Both the position numbers and the translations under genes were made by a program. A stretch of DNA of 21,428 nt from a virus. The stretch spans positions 1 through 21,428 of the IMG/VR virus record IMGVR_UViG_3300012532_000017; one strand, 5' to 3'. Under the pieces are notes generated by a model. The model ran no database searches, was not told the DNA's origin, and was given only the letters and a program-made list of their open reading frames with translations. Below are positions 1-19,850 of the stretch, piece by piece (position 1 is the first letter of the stretch; each line of letters begins with the position of its first letter).

Positions 1-133
1 CCGCCCCCGCCTGCGCCGCCACCGTGCCAGCAAGCCCCCGCGCCGCATCGGTGTGCGCGCGCGAGAGGGCTTGCTGGCGGGTGAGGCCGAAGCCGAGAAC
101 CTGGGGAGTCGTTCGCTTCGAGATGCGGAGCAT
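1..133 (-). CDS. Partial CDS, N-terminus only, unknown function
   Basis: The gene starts with ATG directly before the window edge and gives 44 codons, beginning MLRISKRTTPQVLGFGLTRQ. A strong Shine-Dalgarno sequence (GGGAGGAG) lies in the last codons of the gp16-like gene, whose TAA stop abuts the ATG, so the two are translationally coupled. The visible part is basic and then Ala/Gly-rich, with no signal peptide or motif I recognise. In T7-like order, tail fibre or lysis genes would follow gp16, but nothing here proves either. The start is well supported; the function is unknown. Confidence 0.6.
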   Translation of the reverse strand, partial: MLRISKRTTPQVLGFGLTRQQALSRAHTDAARGLAGTVAAQAGA

Positions 134-3100
134 TTACTCCTCCCACATGTTGAACAGGCTCACTGGCTGCTGGTGGTTCATCTGCTGCCCGTACGTGAGG
201 CCCGAGACGACGTGCCCGTAGCGACCGCGTTCGAGGTCGCGACCGAGGTTGTGCATCACGTACCCGCCGGTCTTGCGCGCCTGGCCAAAGCCGGGCGAGC
301 CGCCGAGGATGAACAGCGCATCCATCGCGGACATGGCTGGGTTCTCGGAGTCGTACTGCGCCGTGCCCGCGATGTGCTTCTTCACGTTCGAGGCATCCCT
401 CATCAGCCGGTCAATGAGCGCGAAGCCGGGCGCCGTCTTCATGTTGGCCGGCTTCCCGTCGATCATGGAAAGGGCAGCGGGGCCGAGGATGGGTGCGCCG
501 TAGAGCGAAGTCAGCGTCGCCCTCTTCAGCGCCCACTCCGGCGCGTCCTCCGGCTTGCTCGGCCCGCGGTTCGCGAGGAAGTCACCGACGCCGCCGACCA
601 CGAGACCAAGAGCCACGATGTGGCCCGTGAACTTCGCGACCGCGGTGGCCTTGTCCATCTTCGTCGCGCCGGGCTCGCGCCAGGCGTCGAGCATGTTGAC
701 GACCTCCTGGCGGTGCATCCCGTAGACCCGGTTCGCGAAGCCGTACAGGAATGTCATCGCGCCCAGGAACCCCTTGTCGCGGAGCAGGGCGGCCTTGCCG
801 CCAACGTCGTGCGCCGGCATGAACTTGCGGAGCGTCGCGTCGGCGTCGCGAACAGCCTCGGCCTCCAGCGACCCGGCGGCGGACAGCTCATTGAACTTCG
901 CCAACCAGATGGACGTCGAGGACATCGCGTCCGTGCGCTCCATTGCCCAGTACGCCGCGGTCTCCACCTTGCGCTGGAGATCGCCGCGACCGGCGGCCAT
1001 CGAGCCCAGTTCGAGGCCGACGCTGTTGCCGTGGCCCTCGGCGCGGTACCGAAGCTCCGGCGAGAGGCGGAGTGCCTCGGCGCGGAGCGTCGGGTAGTGC
1101 GCCGCCAGCTTCACGGTGACGAGGGCCAGGTGCTTGGCCGAGACGTCGCCGGTCGCGAACGCCATAAGCGGGTTCGAGAGGTCGGACAGCGGAATGGCGA
1201 GGTTGAACCCGCACGCCGCCAGCGCGACCTTGCTCTTGATGGACGCCACCCAGCCGTTCACCGTCGCCATCGAGTCGGCGAGCGAGTCGGCCTGCTGCGA
1301 TGCGACGGCCTTCAGCCACGGCATGAACTGCTTCGCGTACTCCTTGCCCATCGTCTTCTGCACGAGGGACTCGAAGCGCGGGTCGAGGAACAGTCCGCCG
1401 ACCTGCTTCACGAACTTGCGGTACGCGACGTCGTGCAGTACCTGGCTGACGTGCGCGGGGACGACGCGCCAGTCGAGGTTGAGCAGGTCGGTCGCATTCT
1501 CCGAGCGCGCCTGCGCGTGCGTGGTTGCCGTCTTCGCGCCGCGGTAGTTCGGCGACATGAGCGCCGCGATGCCGGCCGCCTCCTGCTTCTCGCCGACGCG
1601 ACTCTCCGAGGGGACCCGGGAGTCGTAGCGCGCGGGGAAGTAGCCGCCCGCGAGGGTCAGCTCCTCGCCCATCTCGCCCGCCTCGCCAGCGCCGATGCGG
1701 ACCTTGAGCGGCGTCGCCTCGATGCGCTCCGGCGCGAGCCCCGTATCCTCACGGTGAACGCGCTCGATGTGCGGGTAGAGCTTCGACAGCGAGTTCCACA
1801 CGTCCTGCACCCAGAGCCACTCGGCCTTGGTCATGCGCTTCTGCAGCGCGTCCATGACCTGGCGCTCGGACCAGCCATACCCGTCGAGCATGCGCTGCTT
1901 GTTGCCGGCGTTGCCGAGGTTCAGGGCGATCATCCAGAGGTACGAGCGCGGGACCTCGTTGTCCTTCAGGAAGCTCTGCGCGTGCTCCGGCAGCGGGAGT
2001 TCGGCGGACAGGTCCGTCGTCCTCTCGTTCGCCCGGTCGCGCATGCGCTTCGGCATCGCGTCCCACTTCTCCTGCAGCCCTTCGAGGAAGTCGCGGGAGA
2101 GCTGCAGTTCGTAGTCGCGCGCCCTGAGGCGCTCGCCGACGAGCAGCTTCCACAGCGGGGCCTCGCGGTCGCCACCCACGAGCTGGGAGACGAGGTCCTC
2201 CATGTTCGTGAGGTTCGCGTCCATGGAGCTGAGCACGCGGCTCGCCACCTCGAAATACTTCGCCTTGCCGGGCGCGCGGTCGTACTTCCCTGCCTCGGGC
2301 AGGCGCTTCGCGCGCTCGGCCGTGTCATCGAGCAGCTCGGCGCGCTCCAGGGCGCGACCGGCGACGTCGACCTTCGTCTTGCCGGCGGCAGCATGGCGGA
2401 TGTTCTCAACCGCGTCCCGCAGGTTCAGCGCCTCGTCGACCGTCATGGTCTCGAAGGGGTGCGGCTGGGCGAGCAGGTCGCGGATGGACTGCGCGTCCCA
2501 CAGCCCGGACTGCAGGTTGCCCTGCGAGTCGCGAGCGACGCCAGCGGCGTCCCGCTCCATGCGCGCGAGCATCGACTCGAACGCGGCGGCGTTGGGGACC
2601 GTGCCCTCGCGCCCCTTGAGGAAGCCGGCGGCCTGGAGGATGGCGTCGCCGCCATCGGCGTACGACGCGTCGGCCTTGCCGAGCTTCGTGCGGGACGCGA
2701 CCTCAGCCATCGCCCGGAGGCGCTTGTCGGCGCGAGCGACCTCGACGCGACGGTCGCGGGCGGCGCGCCAGAGCAGCTTGTTGAGGATGACGTTGTCGTA
2801 CTCGGCGTACGCGCCCTCGTAGAACCTGTCGGCCATCTCCTGCTGGCCGCGGTCGCGCGCCTCGGCCGCCTTCGTCATCAGCCCGAAGGCGCGCTTCAGT
2901 GCGCCGCGCTCGGCGTCGAGGTGGTACCGCTCATTGAGCGTGTCGACGCGGGTGCCGTCCACGATACGCTTCGCGTTCATGCGAAGCACGGACATTGGCA
3001 TGTCCTGACCGAGGACGCGGACACCCTCGCCCTTCTTCGTGCCGCGCAGTGCGCGCGCGAGAGCGTCGTGGACGCGGACGGCCTCCTCAATGTCGGGCGC

Positions 3101-5983
3101 GTTATGCAGCCCGTCCTCGCCCACGGCCACGAGAGCGTCGTGGCTCTTCGCGAGCGCGGGGCCGAACGCCTCCTCGAACCGCGAGGTGGTCTCGCGCTCG
3201 ACGACGGCGTCCTTGGGCTCGGCATGCGCGAGGTCGAGGGCCAGCTCCTTGCCCGACGACTCCGGCGCGAACAGCGAGGCGAACTCATCGGGGTGCATGC
3301 CGCCCTTCTTGGCGATCATGCCCTTCTGCCTGAGCGCCTCGAACGCCTTCTTGCCGGCGACTTCGAGGACGGCCTCGCCGTCGAGTCGCACGGGCCGCCC
3401 GGCCTCGTCACGCAGCGCCTCGGGGAGCTGGCTCTTCGCGAACACCCTGCCGGTGCCCGGGTCGAGCAGCTCGCCGGCACGGAGGAAGTCGTGGGCGCGA
3501 TAGAGCGGCGAGGCGGAGACGGATGCGTGCGCCTCGGCCCTCATGCTCTCGCGGGCGTCGCGCAGCGCGCCCGTGGTCCCGCGTCCGTCGGACTTCGCGG
3601 TCTCGACATCAAGCCGCGCGCGAGCCTCGGCGTACTTCTGCTCGCGAACGGCTTCGAGCTGCGCGCGCTCCTCGGGCGTGAGGTTCAGCAGCGAGGCGAC
3701 ATCAACCGAGCGGTCGCGCGCGCGCATCGCCTCGACGGTGTCGGCGGCGGGGGCGGCAACGAGGGCGCGAGCCAGCTCCTGGGCGCCGATCGGCTTCCGC
3801 CGATTCAGCTTGCCGAGGTCGGTGGCGGCAAGCTCCTTAGGCGAGAGCACGTACCGGTCGGAGAGCGTGCCCTCCACGGGAACGAGCTTGAACGGGACGC
3901 CCTGCGCGATGAGCCGCTGGTACATGCGCTCCGAGGCGTCGGAGCGAGTCTTGTCGGAGACCCAGCCCTTGCCATCCTTCTTCGCGTCGACGAGCGCAGC
4001 GACGTACGACTCGGTCGCGAAGCCCTTGCCGCGCAGGGGCGCGTGGAGGGCCTCAGAGTCCTTGCCGGACCCATGGACGTAGCCGCTGACCGAGCGGTGG
4101 TCGGTGTACTCACCGTGCGGGTCGTTCTCCTCGACCGTGAGCCGCATCGGCGACTCAGGGTGTGTGTAGACGATCTGCCCGCCGTCGCGCGCCGAGGTGA
4201 CGGGTGACGCGCCGCCCAGAGCGGCGGCGGCGGCGCGCGCGGCGGCGCCGGCCTGGTTGAGCTTCACGAGCCTCTGAATGGTGTCGACCGTTTGCCGCTC
4301 GGTCATGCCGCCAAGGTCGGAGCGGACGTCGAGCGCGAGCGCCTTGTCGTGCCCGGCCAGGACCATCTTGGTGGCCCACTTCGACAGGGGCACCGCGACG
4401 TCGCCGCCGCCGGACGTGGCCGCGTCGTAGCCCTGGCCCTCGTCGCCGATTACCTTGGCCGCGACCTCGCGCGGGCTCACGCCCTCACCGGTCTTCGTGA
4501 AGTAGGCGTCCCACGCCTCCTTGGTCACGTACACCGTGCGCCCGGGGCCGATCTTGTTCACCAGCTCCTCGAACTTCTCGGGCGAGCGCGTGGCGAGCTT
4601 GGATGTGCGGGTGCCCTCGGCGACGTCGCGCAGGGCGGCGGCCTGGTTCTGCGACTCGCTCACGCGACCGAGGTCGGACATGAGGCCGCGGAAGGGCTTG
4701 TAGAGGGAGAGGGCCCAGAAGTCGGACAGGCCGGTGGTGAATCCGTGGCCGAAGGCGTCGGTGACGTTCCCGACATCGAAGCCCTCGCCGTGCGTGCTCT
4801 TCGCGGTCTCCATGGTCGCAGCGGCGACGGCGCTCTGCCCCGCCATTGCGAGCGCGCCCGAGGCCGCGTGCGACCCGTAGTCGAGCGCGAACTTGCGGAG
4901 GGCCAGCGGGATGGTCTCGCTGGCGAGGAGCTTCTCGGCCGTCTTCGGCAGCGCGGCCGCGAGGAGCTTGGTCGCCATCGGCGCCGTCGCCTTCGAGAGC
5001 ATGGCGCCGGGGCCGCCCGACATGAGCAGGCCGGTCGGCAGCGCGCCCGCGAGCGCGTAGCCGCGAGCCTCGTCCTCGGTGAGGAGCGGCTCGCCCGACG
5101 GGCCCTTCATCTCACGGAGCTGCCAGAACAGCGGGCCCGCGGTCTCGGACGACCAATAGGCCGTGCCGGCCGCAGCGCCGCCCACGCCAGCGCCGAGCGC
5201 AGCGCCGCCGATCGAGGCGGCCGTGCCCTTCACCATCTCGGGGCCCATCGTGGTGAGAAGGCGCGCGAGCTTCGCAACCTGGCGCGTGACGCCGTCCATC
5301 TCGTCGATGAAGTCGTTCGCGTGCGCAAGCCTCGCCTCGTTGATGCGGATGCGGTCCTGGCGCCCCTTCACCTCGTCGGGCGTCATCGGCCTGGTGGCCG
5401 GCATCTCCATCGGCCCGAGGTTCGGGTCGATGTACGTCTCCGTGCCCGGCGCGTCGGCAAGGCGGGTGCCGGTCAGCTCGGCCGTCTGCAGTTCGAGCGT
5501 CTCCCGCTGGAGCGCGCGCACGCTGAAGCCCTCGCGAATGGAACGCGAGAGCTGCTGCAGGACGTTCATGTCGCCCGCCACGAGCGCCTCGTGGCCGGGC
5601 TTCGCGACGAACTCAGCCAGCTCCGGGTGCTGTGCGGAGACCAGCTCCCAGTTCACGCCCTGTGCGTCGACCTCCCTCTTTACGCCCTCAAGGTTCGCCG
5701 CAACGAGGTCGGGCGAGAGGCCGGAGGCGGCCGCGTACTTGAAAACATCGGCCTGGCGCTGCGGGTCGAGCTTGGCGTTCGCCGCCTTGAAGCGCAGGAA
5801 TGCGGCGCGCTGCGATGAGCCGACCTCGCTGTCCACCGCGTCGGCGAGCGGGTCGGCCCCGGGCGCGCGCGGGAGCAGGGGCGCGGGCGGGGTGGACTCG
5901 ACGGGCGCGGCGGCGACGGGAGCCTGGGCCACGGGGGCGGACAGCTCCGCATCGACGGCGGTGGACAGCGGGTCGGCAATCAT
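134..5983 (-). CDS. gp16-like giant internal virion (ejection) protein with embedded GNAT-like domain
   Basis: This 1949-aa protein is the last and largest of a gp13-gp14-gp15-gp16 ejection series. In T7-like phages gp16 is ejected first and helps draw the genome into the cell. The start ATG has a GGAG site 8 bases upstream. Residues 1-60 are Ala/Pro-rich. Residues 250-275, 305-345 and 365-390 are Gly/Ala-rich hydrophobic stretches, and 1785-1805 and 1825-1840 are hydrophobic segments near the C-terminus, as expected for membrane insertion. Residues 600-715 look like an acetyltransferase of the GNAT fold: RGKGFA (651-656) fits the R/Q-x-x-G-x-G/A acetyl-CoA loop and is followed by a helix and a short strand. 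The rest is mostly charged helix. It is longer than T7 gp16 (about 1300 aa), and I see no lytic transglycosylase motif. The family call rests on position, size and composition; the GNAT domain is inference from the motif. Confidence 0.75.
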   Translation of the reverse strand: MIADPLSTAVDAELSAPVAQAPVAAAPVESTPPAPLLPRAPGADPLADAVDSEVGSSQRAAFLRFKAANAKLDPQRQADVFKYAAASGLSPDLVAANLEGVKREVDAQGVNWELVSAQHPELAEFVAKPGHEALVAGDMNVLQQLSRSIREGFSVRALQRETLELQTAELTGTRLADAPGTETYIDPNLGPMEMPATRPMTPDEVKGRQDRIRINEARLAHANDFIDEMDGVTRQVAKLARLLTTMGPEMVKGTAASIGGAALGAGVGGAAAGTAYWSSETAGPLFWQLREMKGPSGEPLLTEDEARGYALAGALPTGLLMSGGPGAMLSKATAPMATKLLAAALPKTAEKLLASETIPLALRKFALDYGSHAASGALAMAGQSAVAAATMETAKSTHGEGFDVGNVTDAFGHGFTTGLSDFWALSLYKPFRGLMSDLGRVSESQNQAAALRDVAEGTRTSKLATRSPEKFEELVNKIGPGRTVYVTKEAWDAYFTKTGEGVSPREVAAKVIGDEGQGYDAATSGGGDVAVPLSKWATKMVLAGHDKALALDVRSDLGGMTERQTVDTIQRLVKLNQAGAAARAAAAALGGASPVTSARDGGQIVYTHPESPMRLTVEENDPHGEYTDHRSVSGYVHGSGKDSEALHAPLRGKGFATESYVAALVDAKKDGKGWVSDKTRSDASERMYQRLIAQGVPFKLVPVEGTLSDRYVLSPKELAATDLGKLNRRKPIGAQELARALVAAPAADTVEAMRARDRSVDVASLLNLTPEERAQLEAVREQKYAEARARLDVETAKSDGRGTTGALRDARESMRAEAHASVSASPLYRAHDFLRAGELLDPGTGRVFAKSQLPEALRDEAGRPVRLDGEAVLEVAGKKAFEALRQKGMIAKKGGMHPDEFASLFAPESSGKELALDLAHAEPKDAVVERETTSRFEEAFGPALAKSHDALVAVGEDGLHNAPDIEEAVRVHDALARALRGTKKGEGVRVLGQDMPMSVLRMNAKRIVDGTRVDTLNERYHLDAERGALKRAFGLMTKAAEARDRGQQEMADRFYEGAYAEYDNVILNKLLWRAARDRRVEVARADKRLRAMAEVASRTKLGKADASYADGGDAILQAAGFLKGREGTVPNAAAFESMLARMERDAAGVARDSQGNLQSGLWDAQSIRDLLAQPHPFETMTVDEALNLRDAVENIRHAAAGKTKVDVAGRALERAELLDDTAERAKRLPEAGKYDRAPGKAKYFEVASRVLSSMDANLTNMEDLVSQLVGGDREAPLWKLLVGERLRARDYELQLSRDFLEGLQEKWDAMPKRMRDRANERTTDLSAELPLPEHAQSFLKDNEVPRSYLWMIALNLGNAGNKQRMLDGYGWSERQVMDALQKRMTKAEWLWVQDVWNSLSKLYPHIERVHREDTGLAPERIEATPLKVRIGAGEAGEMGEELTLAGGYFPARYDSRVPSESRVGEKQEAAGIAALMSPNYRGAKTATTHAQARSENATDLLNLDWRVVPAHVSQVLHDVAYRKFVKQVGGLFLDPRFESLVQKTMGKEYAKQFMPWLKAVASQQADSLADSMATVNGWVASIKSKVALAACGFNLAIPLSDLSNPLMAFATGDVSAKHLALVTVKLAAHYPTLRAEALRLSPELRYRAEGHGNSVGLELGSMAAGRGDLQRKVETAAYWAMERTDAMSSTSIWLAKFNELSAAGSLEAEAVRDADATLRKFMPAHDVGGKAALLRDKGFLGAMTFLYGFANRVYGMHRQEVVNMLDAWREPGATKMDKATAVAKFTGHIVALGLVVGGVGDFLANRGPSKPEDAPEWALKRATLTSLYGAPILGPAALSMIDGKPANMKTAPGFALIDRLMRDASNVKKHIAGTAQYDSENPAMSAMDALFILGGSPGFGQARKTGGYVMHNLGRDLERGRYGHVVSGLTYGQQMNHQQPVSLFNMWEE

Positions 5984-6027: not shown

Positions 6028-7884
6028 CTACTCGCCGCTACTCGACCCCGGTGATGGTGCGACGGCGGACGGCGCGGCCTGCTCGGCGCTGAACACCGGC
6101 GTGCTGCCGGTCGCGGGGGTACGGAGGAAGCGGAGGTACGCGCTGCGAAGCTGCTCGGACGTTGGGTTCTTGACGCCCTTGTCGAGGAAGAGCTTCTGCA
6201 GTCGCGGGAGCATGGCGCTCGGGACGTCGACCTTGAAGCCTTGCTCCTTGCCGAGGCGCCTGGCGTCGAGGACTGTGACGTTGCGCGTGTCGCGCTCGTA
6301 CAGGTGACCGCTATCGATGCGACCCTTCGCGAGCGTCGTGGCGATCTCGGCGTTGTACTCCTGCAGCGTGGGCGGGCGCGGGACGCCGCTCTTGTTGTCG
6401 CCCTTGCCGTTCTTGAAGTCCGCCTCCCACTGAATCATGTGGTCGTGGGCGTCCGCGAGGCGCGCGTCCTGCGCCTGCATGAGGTACGGGTCCTTCTCGG
6501 CCGGGTTGTAGAGCCCGTTGTTCTTCATCGTCTGGCGCAGCTGCGCCTCGATGGGGGGCGGGAGGGCCAGGCCTGGCTTCTGGAAGCGCGCGACCCCTGC
6601 GGCGATGCGCGGGACCATGGTGTCGAGGTCCTTCTTCGCGAGCACCGGCGCGTACGTCGCGATGATCTGCGGCTCGGTCTTGCCGGCGAACTGGCCGGGG
6701 TTGCTGTCGAGGTCGCCGATGAGCTTCGAGAGGGCGGCGAGCTGCGCGTTCGTGCGCGGAGCGCTCTCGGCCTCGTGCTTATACCGCCACTCCAGCGCCT
6801 CCAGCTCGATGCGCCCCTGCGGCGTTACCTTCGCCATGAGCGCGGGAGGGATGGCGCCGACGGTGCGCCTCGTCGGGTCGGCGCTCTGGGCCTCCATCGC
6901 GCGGAGCGCGTTGGTGAAGCCGAGCGACTCGTCCGCGTTCTTCTCGTTGTGCGCCCGCTCGACGCGGTGCTCGAAGCGCGCGACCGCCTGGTCGCGCTCG
7001 AGGCCGGCGGGGATGTTGCCGTCAATCCAGGCGCGCCCGTCCTCGCCGTCGATGCTGCCGTCGGGGCGGCCGAACTTCACCTCCAGCGCCTGCGCGGCCT
7101 GCTCGCCCTTCTGTGCGACGGCGACGGACTGCGCCTCGCCGATGAGGGGGACGGCCTTCGTTCCGAGGTCGTCGCGGTGAGCGTTGATGACCTCCATGGC
7201 CTCGATGCCGCGACCGGACTTCAGCAGCGTCTCGGCCTGCGCGACGTAGACCTTCGAGGCCTCGTCGAGCGCGAGCGCCGAGGTCTGCTCGGGACTCATC
7301 CCGCGCGCCTTCGCGAACATCTCGGCGCGCCCCTTCACGTTCGTGACCTCGACCGCGATGCCGCCGACGTCGCCTGGGAAGCGGACGGCGTGCTGCACGG
7401 AAAGCTCGTTCGCTGAGACGAACTGATGAGTCTGGTACTCGTCGACCTGCTGGCGGACGTGCGCCTCGCCGAGCCGCTTCGCGCCGAGCAGCTCGCCCTC
7501 GGCGTGTGCCGCGAAGAGCCGCTTCTGCTGGTCGTTGACGAGCCCGCCGAAGATGGCCTTCGCGTCCGCGTCGTTGGCCGTGTAGGCGTCGCCGGCAGCC
7601 GCCAGCGCGTCCTTACCCTTGGCCTGCTGCACGGCGTCCATGCGCTGCTGCGTGTTCGCCTTGAGCGCGTTCAGCGCCTCCAGCGCCTGAGCCTCGTCGG
7701 CCTTGTTGCGCTCCTGCTGGTAGAGCTGACCAATGTGACTGGCCGCGCCGGAGACCGCGTTGAGGCCCTGCGTGAGCCCGGCGCCCATCGCCTCGGGACT
7801 GGCGTCACCGAGGGACTCGGGGTTGACGGGGAGCGGCCGCGAGGAGGCCTGCTGCTGGTCGTAGACGGGGATGCGAAGGGCCAT
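6028..7884 (-). CDS. gp15-like internal virion (ejection) protein
   Basis: This 618-aa protein sits between gp14-like and gp16-like genes, the position of T7 gp15, which joins gp16 in the tube that carries DNA across the periplasm. The start (MALRIPVYDQQQ) resembles the N-termini of podoviral internal virion proteins, which often open with a short RIPVY-type stretch. Residues about 45-95 are rich in Gln, Ala, Lys and Glu and look like a coiled coil. The whole protein is helical and soluble, with no membrane segment, and ends in a Ser/Pro/Ala tail. A TGAGGA site precedes the ATG, 8 bases after the stop of the gp14-like gene. A 44-base gap separates it from the gp16-like gene. The role is inferred from synteny and composition; no catalytic motif is visible. 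Confidence 0.7.
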   Translation of the reverse strand: MALRIPVYDQQQASSRPLPVNPESLGDASPEAMGAGLTQGLNAVSGAASHIGQLYQQERNKADEAQALEALNALKANTQQRMDAVQQAKGKDALAAAGDAYTANDADAKAIFGGLVNDQQKRLFAAHAEGELLGAKRLGEAHVRQQVDEYQTHQFVSANELSVQHAVRFPGDVGGIAVEVTNVKGRAEMFAKARGMSPEQTSALALDEASKVYVAQAETLLKSGRGIEAMEVINAHRDDLGTKAVPLIGEAQSVAVAQKGEQAAQALEVKFGRPDGSIDGEDGRAWIDGNIPAGLERDQAVARFEHRVERAHNEKNADESLGFTNALRAMEAQSADPTRRTVGAIPPALMAKVTPQGRIELEALEWRYKHEAESAPRTNAQLAALSKLIGDLDSNPGQFAGKTEPQIIATYAPVLAKKDLDTMVPRIAAGVARFQKPGLALPPPIEAQLRQTMKNNGLYNPAEKDPYLMQAQDARLADAHDHMIQWEADFKNGKGDNKSGVPRPPTLQEYNAEIATTLAKGRIDSGHLYERDTRNVTVLDARRLGKEQGFKVDVPSAMLPRLQKLFLDKGVKNPTSEQLRSAYLRFLRTPATGSTPVFSAEQAAPSAVAPSPGSSSGE

Positions 7885-7892
7885 CTGATTCC

Positions 7893-8453
7893 TCAGGGAC
7901 GCGCGAGGTAGTAGGGGATGCTGCCGCCGCCAGGGGCCTTGGGTGTCGACTGGAACAGGCCGCCCGCCGAGGCCGCGCTCATCCCCGCGCTCGCCGCGCC
8001 GGAGATGCCGCCGAGAATGGAGCTGAACGCCGCGGAGTCGTCAGCGGCCTTGGCGGCCTTGCCCTGCGCGATGAAGTTCGCGCCCTGCGCTCGCATGCCC
8101 CAGGCCTCGCGGGCAGCGTTGTTACGGACGGTGTCCTCGTCCATTGAGGCGAGCATCGCGGTATCGGTGAACGCGCGCGCCGTCGAGCCGGAGCTGACGT
8201 CGACCCCGTTCTCGGCGGCGATGGTCCTGCCGGAGCCGATGATCTGCGAGGCCTTCTGCGCGACCTTGCCGGCGTCGACCTCGCCGGACTGGAGGGCGTA
8301 GTCGGCCGACTGGTTCGCGAGGCGCGCGTTGGCCTCGGCGATGGACATCGCCTTGTCGCCGGCCGCCCTGTTCGAGAGGTAGCCGTTGACGCCGCCAGCA
8401 ACGGCGCTCGCGGCGGCGACGGAACCGAGAGTGATGGAGACCGGGTCACACAT
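7893..8453 (-). CDS. gp14-like internal virion protein
   Basis: This 186-aa protein opens with MCDPVS and a small-residue hydrophobic segment (residues 7-27), a start common among gp14-type virion core proteins of podoviruses. The middle (35-150) is Ala-rich helix with many charged residues, and 145-165 is a second Gly/Ala/Ser-rich hydrophobic stretch. T7 gp14 is the smallest ejected core protein and ends in the host outer membrane; the two hydrophobic ends here would fit that. The ATG overlaps the end of the gp13-like gene by 8 bases and has an AGGAG site 8 bases upstream. The family call rests on the N-terminus, size and position. Confidence 0.72.
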   Translation of the reverse strand: MCDPVSITLGSVAAASAVAGGVNGYLSNRAAGDKAMSIAEANARLANQSADYALQSGEVDAGKVAQKASQIIGSGRTIAAENGVDVSSGSTARAFTDTAMLASMDEDTVRNNAAREAWGMRAQGANFIAQGKAAKAADDSAAFSSILGGISGAASAGMSAASAGGLFQSTPKAPGGGSIPYYLARP

Positions 8454-8928
8454 GGACGCTGCTCCTGCGGACGACGGGGTGGAAGGGGAGGCCGGAGGCG
8501 CCGAACGGGGATGCCGGATGGACCTCGAAGCCGAGGGCCGAGAGCCAGCGCAGGGCGGCGGTGTACCGGGCGTCCACCATGTTTACGAGCGCGCGGTGCT
8601 CGCCCTGGAGGAACGGCAGCACCTCGCGGCAGGTCCGCACGAAGGCGCGCGGGTGGCGCGTCAGGGTGTCGGTGCCGAGGAGCCAGATGACGCCCACCGG
8701 GTCGAGCACCTGGCCCACGTCCACGAGACCGAAGCAGCAGGCCAGCTCGCCGTCGAACCGCACCGCCCAGGCGCGCTCGCCGGAGGCCTCGATACTCTTC
8801 GCCACCGCGGCGTAGGCGTCGAAGCCTCCGGCCGCCAGCACCTCGGCGGCATCCGCGGCGCGCAGGCGCGGGGCCATCTCGCGCGCGTGCTCCAGCGTGG
8901 CCGGTACGATGGTGACGACGGGGCCCAC
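8446..8928 (-). CDS. gp13-like GNAT-fold acetyltransferase-related protein
   Basis: This is a 160-aa protein starting at GTG 8928. The start is chosen because GGAGGG lies 5 bases upstream and the GTG shares one base with the TAG stop of the gp12-like gene. It looks like the DUF2833/T7 gp13 group, a GNAT-related family encoded beside the internal virion proteins. Visible features are an N-terminal strand (VTIVPATLEHAREM), a central strand pair (WAVRFDGELACCFGL), the WLLGT stretch, and a C-terminal segment NMVDARYTAALRWLSALGFE, typical of the last helix of GNAT proteins. The usual R/Q-x-x-G-x-G/A acetyl-CoA loop is not obvious, so it may not be an active enzyme. T7 gp13 is needed for correct assembly of the internal core, which is the likely role here. 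Confidence 0.75.
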   Translation of the reverse strand: MGPVVTIVPATLEHAREMAPRLRAADAAEVLAAGGFDAYAAVAKSIEASGERAWAVRFDGELACCFGLVDVGQVLDPVGVIWLLGTDTLTRHPRAFVRTCREVLPFLQGEHRALVNMVDARYTAALRWLSALGFEVHPASPFGASGLPFHPVVRRSSVHV

Positions 8929-10982
8929 TAGAACCCTCCAATCTCGACGTCGCGAACGGCGGCGAGCACGGTGACGGGGAGAGGCGCGGACTGGCGCAGG
9001 CATGCGCGTCCGCCGCGATTCCAGGCGCTGTCGACGGACACGACGAACGAATCGTTCACGATGCCTTCGGCCGGCATCTGGTAGCCGAGCGGCATCGTCC
9101 AGGGGCGCAGGGCGGCGAAGCTCTCGCCGGCCGTCAGCGTCGCGGCGCGGTCCACCTCGAACACGACGCGCGAGACGAGCTTCTCGTTCGTCGAGACCTC
9201 CAACATCTGCGAGGAGTCGCCGTGCGAGTGGATGTCGAGCAGTTCGAGGTCCGAGAGGTACGACAGCCCGACGATGACGTGCACGGCCGCGACCGGGAGC
9301 GTGATGGCGCCGCCGACCGAGACGGTGAACGGCCCCCGCACGACACCGTCCGCGAGCGCGTAGACGGTCTTGTTTGCGAGGTGGCCGAGGCCGGTGACGC
9401 TGGTCGACGAGGCCTGGTCGATGACGAGCGAGCAGTCGAGGAAGATGCCGAGCTTCGCGTCGAGCACCGTGCGGGTGGCGAGGCGCTCGATGTAGCGGCG
9501 CGTGGCGCTGTTCACCGTGCGTCGAACGACCGCGTAGACGACGTCCTCGCTGCCCTCGGCGACGGAGCACACTGACTCGAAGACGCCGTCGCTGTCGTGC
9601 CACGCCCAGGCCGCCGTATCGTTCTCCTTCGAGAAGGTGAGCGAGAGGAGCTTGCCGTCGTCGCGCACCATCCAGGCCTGCGAGAACGGCGTGCGCGCGT
9701 AGCACCAGTCGATGACGGTGCGCGCTGAGGCGCTCAGGAGGTGCGCGGCGGGCAGGGACATGTCGCCACCGCCCCAGCCCTGGCGGCTGGCATCGTAGTC
9801 CAGTGCGCGGACGGAGGCCTGCTGCGCCTGCACGTAGAGGACGGTGTTATTGAGGACGAGCGGCTGGATGCGGGCGCAGCCGTTGGCGCTGATAGGGTTG
9901 ACCGACACATTGGTCGGGGCGAGCGCCGCGGTCCCTGAGCCGTTGACGGCGAACTCGCTGTTGGCCGTGAGGATGAGCAGATCACGAAGCGCGACGAGCG
10001 CGCGAACCTCTTCGTACTGGCGCGAGCCGACAGTGAAGTCGATGCTGTCGTCGTCCTTCTGCGGCAGCGAGTAGTCGAAGTTGTGGAGGGCGCCAGTCTT
10101 CGACAGCAGCACGCGCTGCGGGAAGGAGGGCTGGTTGGCGAAGGCCAGGCGCTGCTGGAAGTACGTCGCGACCGCGGGGTTCTGACCGCTCGCGAGCGGC
10201 GTGGCCCCGGTGGGCGGCTGCTCATCCAGGTTCGGGACCTGGCCCTCGTCGGTGAAGTAGGCCGTCTTCGACGTGCCGACGTAGCCCCACACGCCATCAC
10301 GCCCGCGGTACCAGCAGTACGCGGTCACGTTCGACCCCAGCGCGACCGAGAGCTGGATAGGCTTGTCGGGGTAGACGCACGTCGTCATCGAGGCGGCGAC
10401 GGACGGGAGCGACTCCTCACCGTCGATGGACGAGATGGCTGTGACGACCCACTGCCACGCCTTCGCCAGGTGCGTGCCGTCCGTCGCGATGGCGCCCGTG
10501 AGGAACGTCGGCGTGGCGGGCGTCGCCGTCGCATGCGTCGTCGAGTACGGCGAGATCGTCCAGTTCGCGTGCGCGACGCGCTTCAGCTCCTGCGGCGCGT
10601 AGCCGAGCGCAGTGATGGTCATCACGTCGCCGGCCTGCGTGAATGAGAGGGTCCAGAGGTCGGCCGCCACGTACGGGACGGTGCCGGTGACGGTGGTCAC
10701 GACGGCGCCGTTCTGGAGGACTCGGATGTACTGGTGGCCGAACTCGAGAACGTACGCCTGCGACGTCGAGAAGGTGAAGTCGCGCAGGCGCACCGCCGTC
10801 GCCTCGGCCTGGGCGGGCAGGCAGTACCGGAAGCCGGGGCGATTGGCTGCGGTGCCCGTCGGCGTGAGGATGAAGTTGCGCGCCGTCTTCAGCGAGAATG
10901 CGCGCTTCGGGAGGTCCGTCCGACCGTAGAGGCCGGGGGCGATCTCGCCGCCATGGAAGCTCGTCTGCCGGACCTGGGCCAT
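8928..10982 (-). CDS. Tail tubular protein B, gp12-like (tail nozzle)
   Basis: This 684-aa protein follows the gp11-like gene with no gap: the ATG directly follows its TAA. In T7 gp12 forms the nozzle below the gp11 adaptor ring, through which DNA leaves. The N-terminus is characteristic of the family: QTSFHGGEIAPGLYGRTDL, then a KTARNF stretch and RPGF (about residues 7-52), where Gly, Pro and Arg are usually conserved. The rest is mostly beta structure, as expected of this beta-propeller-like protein, with no membrane segment. Size and position match the family (T7 gp12 is about 790 aa). Confidence in the call is high. It also carries the ribosome binding site of the next gene in its last codons. 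Confidence 0.9.
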   Translation of the reverse strand: MAQVRQTSFHGGEIAPGLYGRTDLPKRAFSLKTARNFILTPTGTAANRPGFRYCLPAQAEATAVRLRDFTFSTSQAYVLEFGHQYIRVLQNGAVVTTVTGTVPYVAADLWTLSFTQAGDVMTITALGYAPQELKRVAHANWTISPYSTTHATATPATPTFLTGAIATDGTHLAKAWQWVVTAISSIDGEESLPSVAASMTTCVYPDKPIQLSVALGSNVTAYCWYRGRDGVWGYVGTSKTAYFTDEGQVPNLDEQPPTGATPLASGQNPAVATYFQQRLAFANQPSFPQRVLLSKTGALHNFDYSLPQKDDDSIDFTVGSRQYEEVRALVALRDLLILTANSEFAVNGSGTAALAPTNVSVNPISANGCARIQPLVLNNTVLYVQAQQASVRALDYDASRQGWGGGDMSLPAAHLLSASARTVIDWCYARTPFSQAWMVRDDGKLLSLTFSKENDTAAWAWHDSDGVFESVCSVAEGSEDVVYAVVRRTVNSATRRYIERLATRTVLDAKLGIFLDCSLVIDQASSTSVTGLGHLANKTVYALADGVVRGPFTVSVGGAITLPVAAVHVIVGLSYLSDLELLDIHSHGDSSQMLEVSTNEKLVSRVVFEVDRAATLTAGESFAALRPWTMPLGYQMPAEGIVNDSFVVSVDSAWNRGGRACLRQSAPLPVTVLAAVRDVEIGGF
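8934..8939 (-). promoter_or_regulatory. Ribosome binding site inside the end of the gp12-like gene
   Basis: GGAGGG lies within the last codons of the tail tubular protein B gene, 5 bases before the GTG at 8928. It fixes the start of the gp13-like gene and implies translational coupling across the one-base TAG/GTG overlap. Confidence 0.75.
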
Positions 10983-19566: not shown

Positions 19567-19642
19567 TGGCTGTGGGGGCTGGGGTCGAACCAGCGACGAG
19601 GCGATTAACAGTCGCCCGCTCTGCCTACTGAGCTACCCCACA
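19567..19642 (-). tRNA. tRNA-Asn (GTT)
   Basis: The sequence folds as a full cloverleaf. The acceptor TGTGGGG pairs with CCCCACA. The D arm is GCTC/GAGC. The anticodon stem GGCGA/TCGCC encloses the loop CTGTTAA with anticodon GTT. A 5-base variable loop follows, and the T arm is GCTGG-TTCGACC-CCAGC. The discriminator is G and CCA is encoded. It is read with the phage genes, between the tRNA-Gln and the terminase. Confidence 0.93.
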
Positions 19643-19775
19643 ACGGAATGGTTTGGCCCGGGGGACGATCGACCCCCGCGAAGCCGGCGCGCGCGCCGAA
19701 AGCCGCACTGAAATGTCGGGAGTCCGGCTCGCCCTTGCCGGCGTGCCCGCGGAGCGCCGCGGGACCCTCGATGAC

Positions 19776-19850
19776 TGGAAGGCGCCCGGGGAATCGAACC
19801 CCGATGAGCGGATTCAGAGACCGCTGTCTTCCCGTTAGACTGAGACGCCT
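19776..19850 (-). tRNA. tRNA-Gln (CTG)
   Basis: The acceptor AGGCGTC pairs with GGCGCCT (one G-T pair), the D arm is GTCT/AGAC, the anticodon stem GCGGT/TCCGC encloses CTCTGAA with anticodon CTG, and the T arm is CGGGG-TTCGATT-CCCCG. CCA is encoded. Oddities are three bases instead of two between acceptor and D stem, a T-T mismatch at the base of the anticodon loop, and a T discriminator, unlike the G usual for tRNA-Gln. Its first 16 bases overlap the end of the RuvC-like gene. Confidence 0.85.

What the first reader, a model, noticed from the sequence alone, without database searches (positions are those of the whole stretch)
3839..4186. GNAT-like acetyltransferase domain inside the giant gp16-like ejection protein
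Seen: residues 600-715 carry a strand pair, then RGKGFA, which fits the acetyl-CoA loop R/Q-x-x-G-x-G/A, a following helix (ATESYVAALVDAKKD), a strand (GWVSD) and a helix with S-x-x-A-x-x-x-Y. Known: gp16-like proteins are injected into the host with the DNA. Inference: the phage may deliver an acetyltransferase into the cell at the first moment of infection, to modify a host target or restriction factor. I know of no described case for a gp16 protein.
Basis: partly seen in the sequence, partly recalled or inferred. Interest (0 to 1): 0.65.

Follow-up and report, generated by a model that had tools for sequence, protein, structure and literature searches.

The report
Acetyltransferase-fold domain in phage ejection protein
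A very large protein that this phage probably injects into bacteria with its DNA really does carry an acetyltransferase-type domain in a spot where related phages carry other effector enzymes, but injected proteins with such domains were already predicted in 2017, and nothing here shows that this one is active.

Summary
Residues ~596-720 of the 1949-aa protein (window 3824-4198, minus strand) form a GNAT (GCN5-related acetyltransferase) domain. The loop motif alone proves nothing: it occurs 4 times in this protein against 4.2 expected. The proof is a family. A spacing signature drawn from the domain and three relatives matches 73 viral contigs; a one-base-misspaced control matches 4. Of 67 aligned members 52 hit Pfam Acetyltransf_1. 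The window domain scores E=7.5e-20 on a subfamily profile built without it. An alignment-based AlphaFold model (core pLDDT ~90) matches almost only GNATs in the PDB (Z up to 9.6).
The host protein is a Bordetella BPP-1 Bbp10-like 'polyvalent' protein: LPD22, a variable effector slot, a conserved C-terminus. The slot in relatives holds ADP-ribosyltransferase, PBECR nuclease, GGDEF, RadC or GNAT domains; 12 other contigs join this GNAT family to the same C-terminus. The window protein lacks the zincin protease motif that most relatives keep beside the slot.
'No described case' is wrong: Iyer et al. 2017 (PMC5512222) predicted GNATs in phage-injected polyvalent proteins. T7 gp16 homology was not found. 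Activity, substrate and ejection remain inferred. New member of a known kind.

The parts
134..5983 (-). giant Bbp10-like polyvalent ejection-type protein, 1949 aa
   Evidence: ORF; phrog_9880 E=3e-127 over residues 763-1910; tblastn to BPP-1 Bbp10 and others
5534..5776 (-). LPD22 (large polyvalent protein associated domain 22), residues 70-150
   Evidence: Pfam PF18834, 32.8 bits, cut-off 28.6
4268..5239 (-). N-terminal conserved segment, about residues 249-572, ending at the slot
   Evidence: phmmer matches in relatives end at residue 547-572; blastp L002 451-572, L004 276-564
3824..4198 (-). GNAT-fold domain, residues 596-720, filling the variable effector slot
   Evidence: subfamily profile E=7.5e-20; blastp to L136 35% over 128 columns, E=5e-12; AF2 model core pLDDT ~90; VIA-align top rows GNATs, Z 8.4-9.6
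4016..4033 (-). RGKGFA, residues 651-656: acetyl-CoA pyrophosphate-binding loop R-x-x-G-x-A, N-terminal to the model helix 655-669
   Evidence: sequence; alignment; model secondary structure
3953..3958 (-). S676-D677 at the end of strand beta5, a signature pair of this phage GNAT family
   Evidence: alignments A3 and A5; imposed by the search pattern, but shared beforehand by window, L080, L101 and L102
3920..3922 (-). Tyr688, in the position of the GNAT general-acid tyrosine of helix alpha4
   Evidence: alignment with family; the role is inference from GNAT knowledge
254..3697 (-). conserved C-terminal part, residues 763-1910
   Evidence: phrog_9880; 574 related stretches in viral contigs
6028..7884 (-). 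structural lysozyme/endolysin-like virion protein, 618 aa
   Evidence: phrog_10475 E=1.8e-19; same position as 'structural lysozyme' in Pseudomonas phages
7893..8453 (-). internal virion protein
   Evidence: phrog_418 E=7e-32
8446..8925 (-). internal virion protein; true start probably near 8925
   Evidence: phrog_308 matches only residues 264-413 of the mechanical ORF 8446-9705

Best explanation
The window protein is a Bbp10-type polyvalent ejection protein of a podovirus-like phage. Between its conserved N- and C-terminal parts lies a variable slot where related phages carry interchangeable effector domains; here it carries a GNAT domain. Shown: family membership, GNAT fold, the slot, and an acquisition separate from the other GNATs found in that slot. 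Inferred: the protein is packaged, enters the cell with the DNA, and the domain uses acetyl-CoA to acetylate a host macromolecule (most likely a protein, perhaps of transcription or translation) early in infection. Loss of the neighbouring zincin motif suggests the domain is not released by that route and acts as part of the larger protein. Confidence: GNAT-family domain in an effector slot about 0.93; ejected and catalytically active on a host target about 0.55. The score given is for the joint statement.
For: Family: signature matched in 73 viral contigs against 4 for a misspaced control; 72 of 73 are in-frame domains, 34 of them in ORFs of at least 1000 codons; 52 of 67 aligned members hit Acetyltransf_1 and 49 hit phrog_37402. 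Window membership. Profile of the family against PDB sequences: 14 of 14 matches are acetyltransferases or GNAT-type proteins, best E=1.2e-5. Fold. Slot: homology stops at residues 547-572 and resumes near 763-822; other slots hold ART-PolyVal (8), LPD3 (6), PBECR5 (4), GGDEF (3), LPD23 (2), PBECR1 (2), PBECR3, RadC, GNAT. Same GNAT family with the same C-terminus in 12 contigs. Separate acquisition: window groups with L126/L136 (95/81) inside a 20-row clade (100/99) that holds no other slot GNAT; starred branches force at least 5 changes. Gene order terminase, connector, protease, capsid, tail, internal virion proteins, lysozyme, giant protein. Literature: PMC5512222, PMC7552054 on Rac.
Against: No Pfam model is hit by the window domain itself. 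The strand before the CoA loop (about residues 639-650) is modelled as low-confidence coil, so the active site may be altered; L126 and L136 share the shortened stretch, which argues against simple decay. Foldseek E-values are modest (best 2.5e-3, TM about 0.4-0.5). Coordinates were not inspected, so the pocket itself is unchecked. No proteomic evidence of packaging was found. The broad-profile masked test is weak.
Confidence: 0.6

Rival explanations
1. A GNAT-fold domain that no longer catalyses: it binds acetyl-CoA or a partner as a sensor or structural module within the ejection protein.
For: The best VIA-align rows are the C-terminal domain of M. tuberculosis ICL2, which to my knowledge binds acetyl-CoA as a regulator rather than as an enzyme. 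The strand before the CoA loop is short and poorly modelled.
Against: Loop glycines, the S-D pair and the alpha4 tyrosine are all kept, and the nearest relatives share the shortened stretch. Slot neighbours in other phages are enzyme families.
Confidence: 0.2
2. An acetyltransferase aimed at RNA (for example aminoacyl-tRNA) rather than protein, in the manner of AtaT/KacT toxins.
For: AtaT, KacT and TacT structures are among the top structural matches, Z 8.5-8.9.
Against: RimI, NAT and aminoglycoside acetyltransferases score the same within 1 Z unit, so the fold does not discriminate. Iyer et al. place their polyvalent GNATs in the RimI-like clade and predict protein substrates.
Confidence: 0.15
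3. A coincidental run of GNAT-like motifs in an alpha/beta stretch of unrelated fold.
For: The loop motif occurs at chance frequency; no Pfam hit for the window domain alone; the single-sequence model failed, pLDDT 41.
Against: Profile, masked and structural tests.
Confidence: 0.04

Closest known systems
GNAT domains of phage polyvalent proteins (Iyer et al. 2017, PMC5512222)
   Same: GNAT inside a very large multidomain protein with LPD domains, predicted to be injected; in relatives such as L080/L115 an ART-like segment is a neighbour, as that paper describes
   Different: In the window protein there is no recognised ART domain and no HExxH zincin. Sequence identity with either family of that paper could not be tested because its accessions are not in the collections
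Bordetella phage BPP-1 Bbp10 (LPD22, PBECR1, CLCA_X zincin, conserved C-terminus)
   Same: LPD22 at the N-terminus, about 25% identity over the C-terminal part, comparable place in the virion gene cluster
   Different: Bbp10 carries a PBECR1 nuclease domain and a zincin (HESGH; residues 700-1000 seeded CLCA_X in PMC3650047); the window protein carries a GNAT and no zincin
phrog_37402
   Same: 49 of 67 family members match it; window domain E=0.0087 on its positions 1007-1066
   Different: Unannotated giant-protein profile, function unknown
phiKMV-like Rac acetyltransferase (PMC7552054)
   Same: Phage GNAT reported to act on host transcription through the RNA polymerase alpha subunit
   Different: Rac is a stand-alone protein, not part of an ejection protein; sequence relation not tested
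T7 gp16
   Same: Large protein at the end of an internal-virion gene cluster
   Different: No sequence relation detected to it

Membership tests
GNAT superfamily | R/Q-x-x-G-x-G/A acetyl-CoA loop followed by helix alpha3 | tested here: met
   RGKGFA 651-656, model helix 655-669; conserved in family
GNAT superfamily | beta-sheet core with alpha3-beta5-alpha4-beta6-beta7 order | tested here: met
   model elements H71-85, E89-91, H98-109, E115-118, E125-129; top PDB rows almost all GNAT, Z up to 9.6
GNAT superfamily | strand beta4 running straight into the loop, splayed from beta5 to hold acetyl-CoA | tested here: inconclusive
   residues about 639-650 are low-confidence coil in the model; coordinates not inspected
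GNAT superfamily | acetyl transfer activity | not testable with these tools
   needs biochemistry
Phage polyvalent proteins (Iyer et al. 2017) | two or more unrelated domains, LPD domains, large size, late/virion gene context | tested here: met
   LPD22 + GNAT + phrog_9880 C-terminus, 1949 aa, virion gene cluster
Phage polyvalent proteins (Iyer et al. 2017) | zincin-like metallopeptidase beside the effector (common, not universal or defining) | tested here: not met
   no HExxH in the protein, nearly invariant in 67 aligned relatives
Iyer GNAT family 1 (gammaproteobacterial prophages) | sequence membership in that family | not testable with these tools
   its accessions are not in the collections searched
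T7 gp16 | sequence homology to gp16 | tested here: inconclusive
   no match in PHROGs or by profile against PDB sequences; distant relation not excluded

The most novel reading that the evidence does not exclude
A distinct S-D-type GNAT family, found here only in uncultured phages, serves as an interchangeable effector of ejection proteins; in the window phage it has displaced the usual protease-flanked effectors and acts as the only recognised enzyme of the protein, modifying a host target as soon as the DNA enters.
Probability: 0.3. Interest if true: 0.6.

Novelty: new member of a known kind. Interest (0 to 1): 0.36.

Why it matters
It gives a concrete, alignable family (signature, subfamilies, a fairly confident model) for a class of predicted injected acetyltransferases, and a clear case of an effector slot in ejection proteins into which different enzymes have been swapped. 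If active, it would be a test case for immediate host modification by virion-delivered enzymes other than T4 Alt.

Tried and rejected
Searches with the window domain alone found nothing: phages, plasmids, viral contigs (10), genome contigs (34), Pfam, PDB sequences. The weak tblastn hits H38, H47 and H48 proved to lie in large S41-peptidase-type proteins (one annotated so) and were rejected as chance. The whole protein as query in viral contigs found nothing. The genome-contig scan with a GNAT alignment found none. The first signature pattern had a one-base spacing error; it missed the window and was kept as a control. Single-sequence structure prediction failed (pLDDT 41). The blastp alignment of phage Jess A reaching back to residue 622 is not GNAT homology. 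No cultured phage matched the L080, L102, L170, L177 or L117 GNATs. T7 gp16 was not found by profile against PDB sequences. PMC4819975 on a related podovirus was not held. Recent insertion judged by composition was rejected: GC3 0.90 in the domain against 0.93-0.94 around it (115).

Full report
Observation. The ORF 134-5983 on the minus strand encodes 1949 aa, and the finding's residues 600-715 correspond exactly to 4186-3839.

Context. The window is a 21.4-kb virus record, probably a fragment. On the minus strand it runs terminase, connector, protease, major capsid protein, tail proteins, two internal virion proteins, a structural lysozyme-like protein and the giant protein. The giant protein has Pfam LPD22 at residues 70-150 and matches phrog_9880 over 763-1910. 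About 25% identical C-terminal parts occur in 37 phage records, among them Bordetella BPP-1 Bbp10, Pseudomonas AF and HU1, Xanthomonas CP2 and Caulobacter Jess A. A profile of that part finds no T7 gp16 structure, so 'gp16-like' is a positional label.

A variable slot. Matches of the N-terminal part in relatives end at residues 547-572 and matches of the C-terminal part begin near 763-822. What lies between differs from phage to phage. In 67 relatives Pfam finds ART-PolyVal in 8, LPD3 in 6, PBECR5 in 4, GGDEF in 3, LPD23 in 2, PBECR1 in 2, and PBECR3, RadC and GNAT in single members. Bbp10 itself has PBECR1 at 643-729. A zincin motif HExxH is nearly invariant in those relatives but absent from the window protein. 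In Bbp10 this is the CLCA_X metalloprotease region (PMC3650047).

Is it GNAT? Searches with the window domain alone failed, and so did single-sequence folding. One relative, L080, carries in its slot a domain that passes the Pfam Acetyltransf_1 cut-off (24.7 against 20.7 bits) and aligns with the window domain without gaps from the loop glycine to the alpha4 tyrosine. From these and two further sequences (L101, L102) I drew the signature G-x-G-x-[AG]-x3-Y-x6-A-x3-G-x4-S-D-x10-Y. As DNA it matches 73 viral contigs; the same pattern with one base missing in a spacer, run first by mistake, matches 4. Of the 73, 72 are in-frame domains. Of the 67 rows of the alignment made from them with the window, 52 hit Acetyltransf_1 and 49 phrog_37402. 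A profile of that alignment hits 14 PDB sequences, all GNAT-type.

Is the window domain a member? Against profiles that exclude it, E=4e-13 (all) and 7.5e-20 (the subfamily ending G-[VI]-P-[FL]). The best single relatives are L136 (35% over 128 columns, E=5e-12 at a database size of 1e8) and L148 (44% over 90). Because the relatives were collected by a signature the window also carries, I masked those nine residues. The domain then still ranks first of 20,001 on the subfamily profile (28.0 bits, next 9.9), and L136 still matches with E=1.8e-4. On the broad profile the masked domain is only 44th, 3.8 bits. The subfamily was picked after looking at the sequences, which weakens that test somewhat.

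Fold. With the 67-row alignment AlphaFold2 gives mean pLDDT 77, about 90 from residue 655 to 724. Foldseek's best PDB rows are almost all GNATs at probability near 1 but modest E (best 2.5e-3). VIA-align gives Z 8.4-9.6 for the top 50, almost all GNATs: ICL2 C-terminal domain, GCN5, RimI, AtaT, KacT, AAC(6')-Ib. Rows within 1 Z unit are ties, so no subfamily or substrate can be read from this. The best viral match is a giant phage protein, A0A516MAA7, 26% identical, E=3.3e-8. A weak point is the stretch 639-650 before the loop, modelled as low-confidence coil where GNATs have strand beta4; L126 and L136 have a similarly shortened stretch.

Distribution and history. Twelve contigs join a GNAT of this family to the same C-terminal part, with L180, L182 and L130 closest in layout: GNAT 160-263 residues before the C-terminal part and no HExxH, against 151 in the window. 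In the tree the window groups with L126/L136 (95/81) in a 20-row clade (100/99) holding no other slot GNAT; the label needs 9 changes, at least 5 by supported branches. The slot has therefore probably received GNATs more than once. None of five members tested matched a cultured phage.

Mechanism. Shown: family, fold, slot, separate acquisition. From established knowledge: GNATs transfer acetyl groups from acetyl-CoA to amines; T4 Alt sets the precedent of a virion-delivered modifier (PMC5512222), and Rac that of a phage GNAT acting on host transcription (PMC7552054). Inferred: packaging, ejection, activity and a host macromolecular target. A non-catalytic GNAT-fold module remains a real rival.

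Novelty. Iyer et al. 2017 describe two GNAT families in polyvalent proteins and predict delivery with the DNA, and a 2021 review repeats this. This is a new member, in a subfamily found here only in uncultured phages, with the added point that the usual zincin is missing.

Noticed in passing
window 134-5983: The protein lacks the HExxH zincin that is nearly invariant in 67 aligned relatives; L130, L180 and L182 also lack HExxH and carry a GNAT close to the C-terminal part.
   Followed up: partly
L126:4305-5909: Tandem GNATs in one ORF: a Pfam-detectable one at residues 176-235 and the S-D-type one with its loop near residue 340.
   Followed up: no
L020:6030-8063: The closest relative of the giant protein (31% over the C-terminal part) carries a GGDEF diguanylate cyclase domain in the slot (E=3.3e-15), a possible injected nucleotide-second-messenger enzyme.
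   Followed up: no
L124:4314-7907: A slot-type protein with GNAT, HSP90/histidine-kinase-like ATPase and metallopeptidase-like domains together.
   Followed up: no
window 19567-19850: tRNA-Asn (gtt) and tRNA-Gln (ctg) genes between the terminase gene and a RuvC-like resolvase gene.
   Followed up: no
window 8446-9705: The mechanical ORF overlaps the tail gene 8928-10982; the family match begins at residue 264, so the real start is probably near 8925.
   Followed up: no
window 2-4207 (+): A 1401-codon open frame opposite the giant gene, probably a mirror of its GC-rich third positions (GC3 about 0.93).
   Followed up: no
L120, L123, L135, L140, L155: Near-identical solo versions (159-164 aa ORFs) of the same GNAT subfamily in several contigs.
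   Followed up: no
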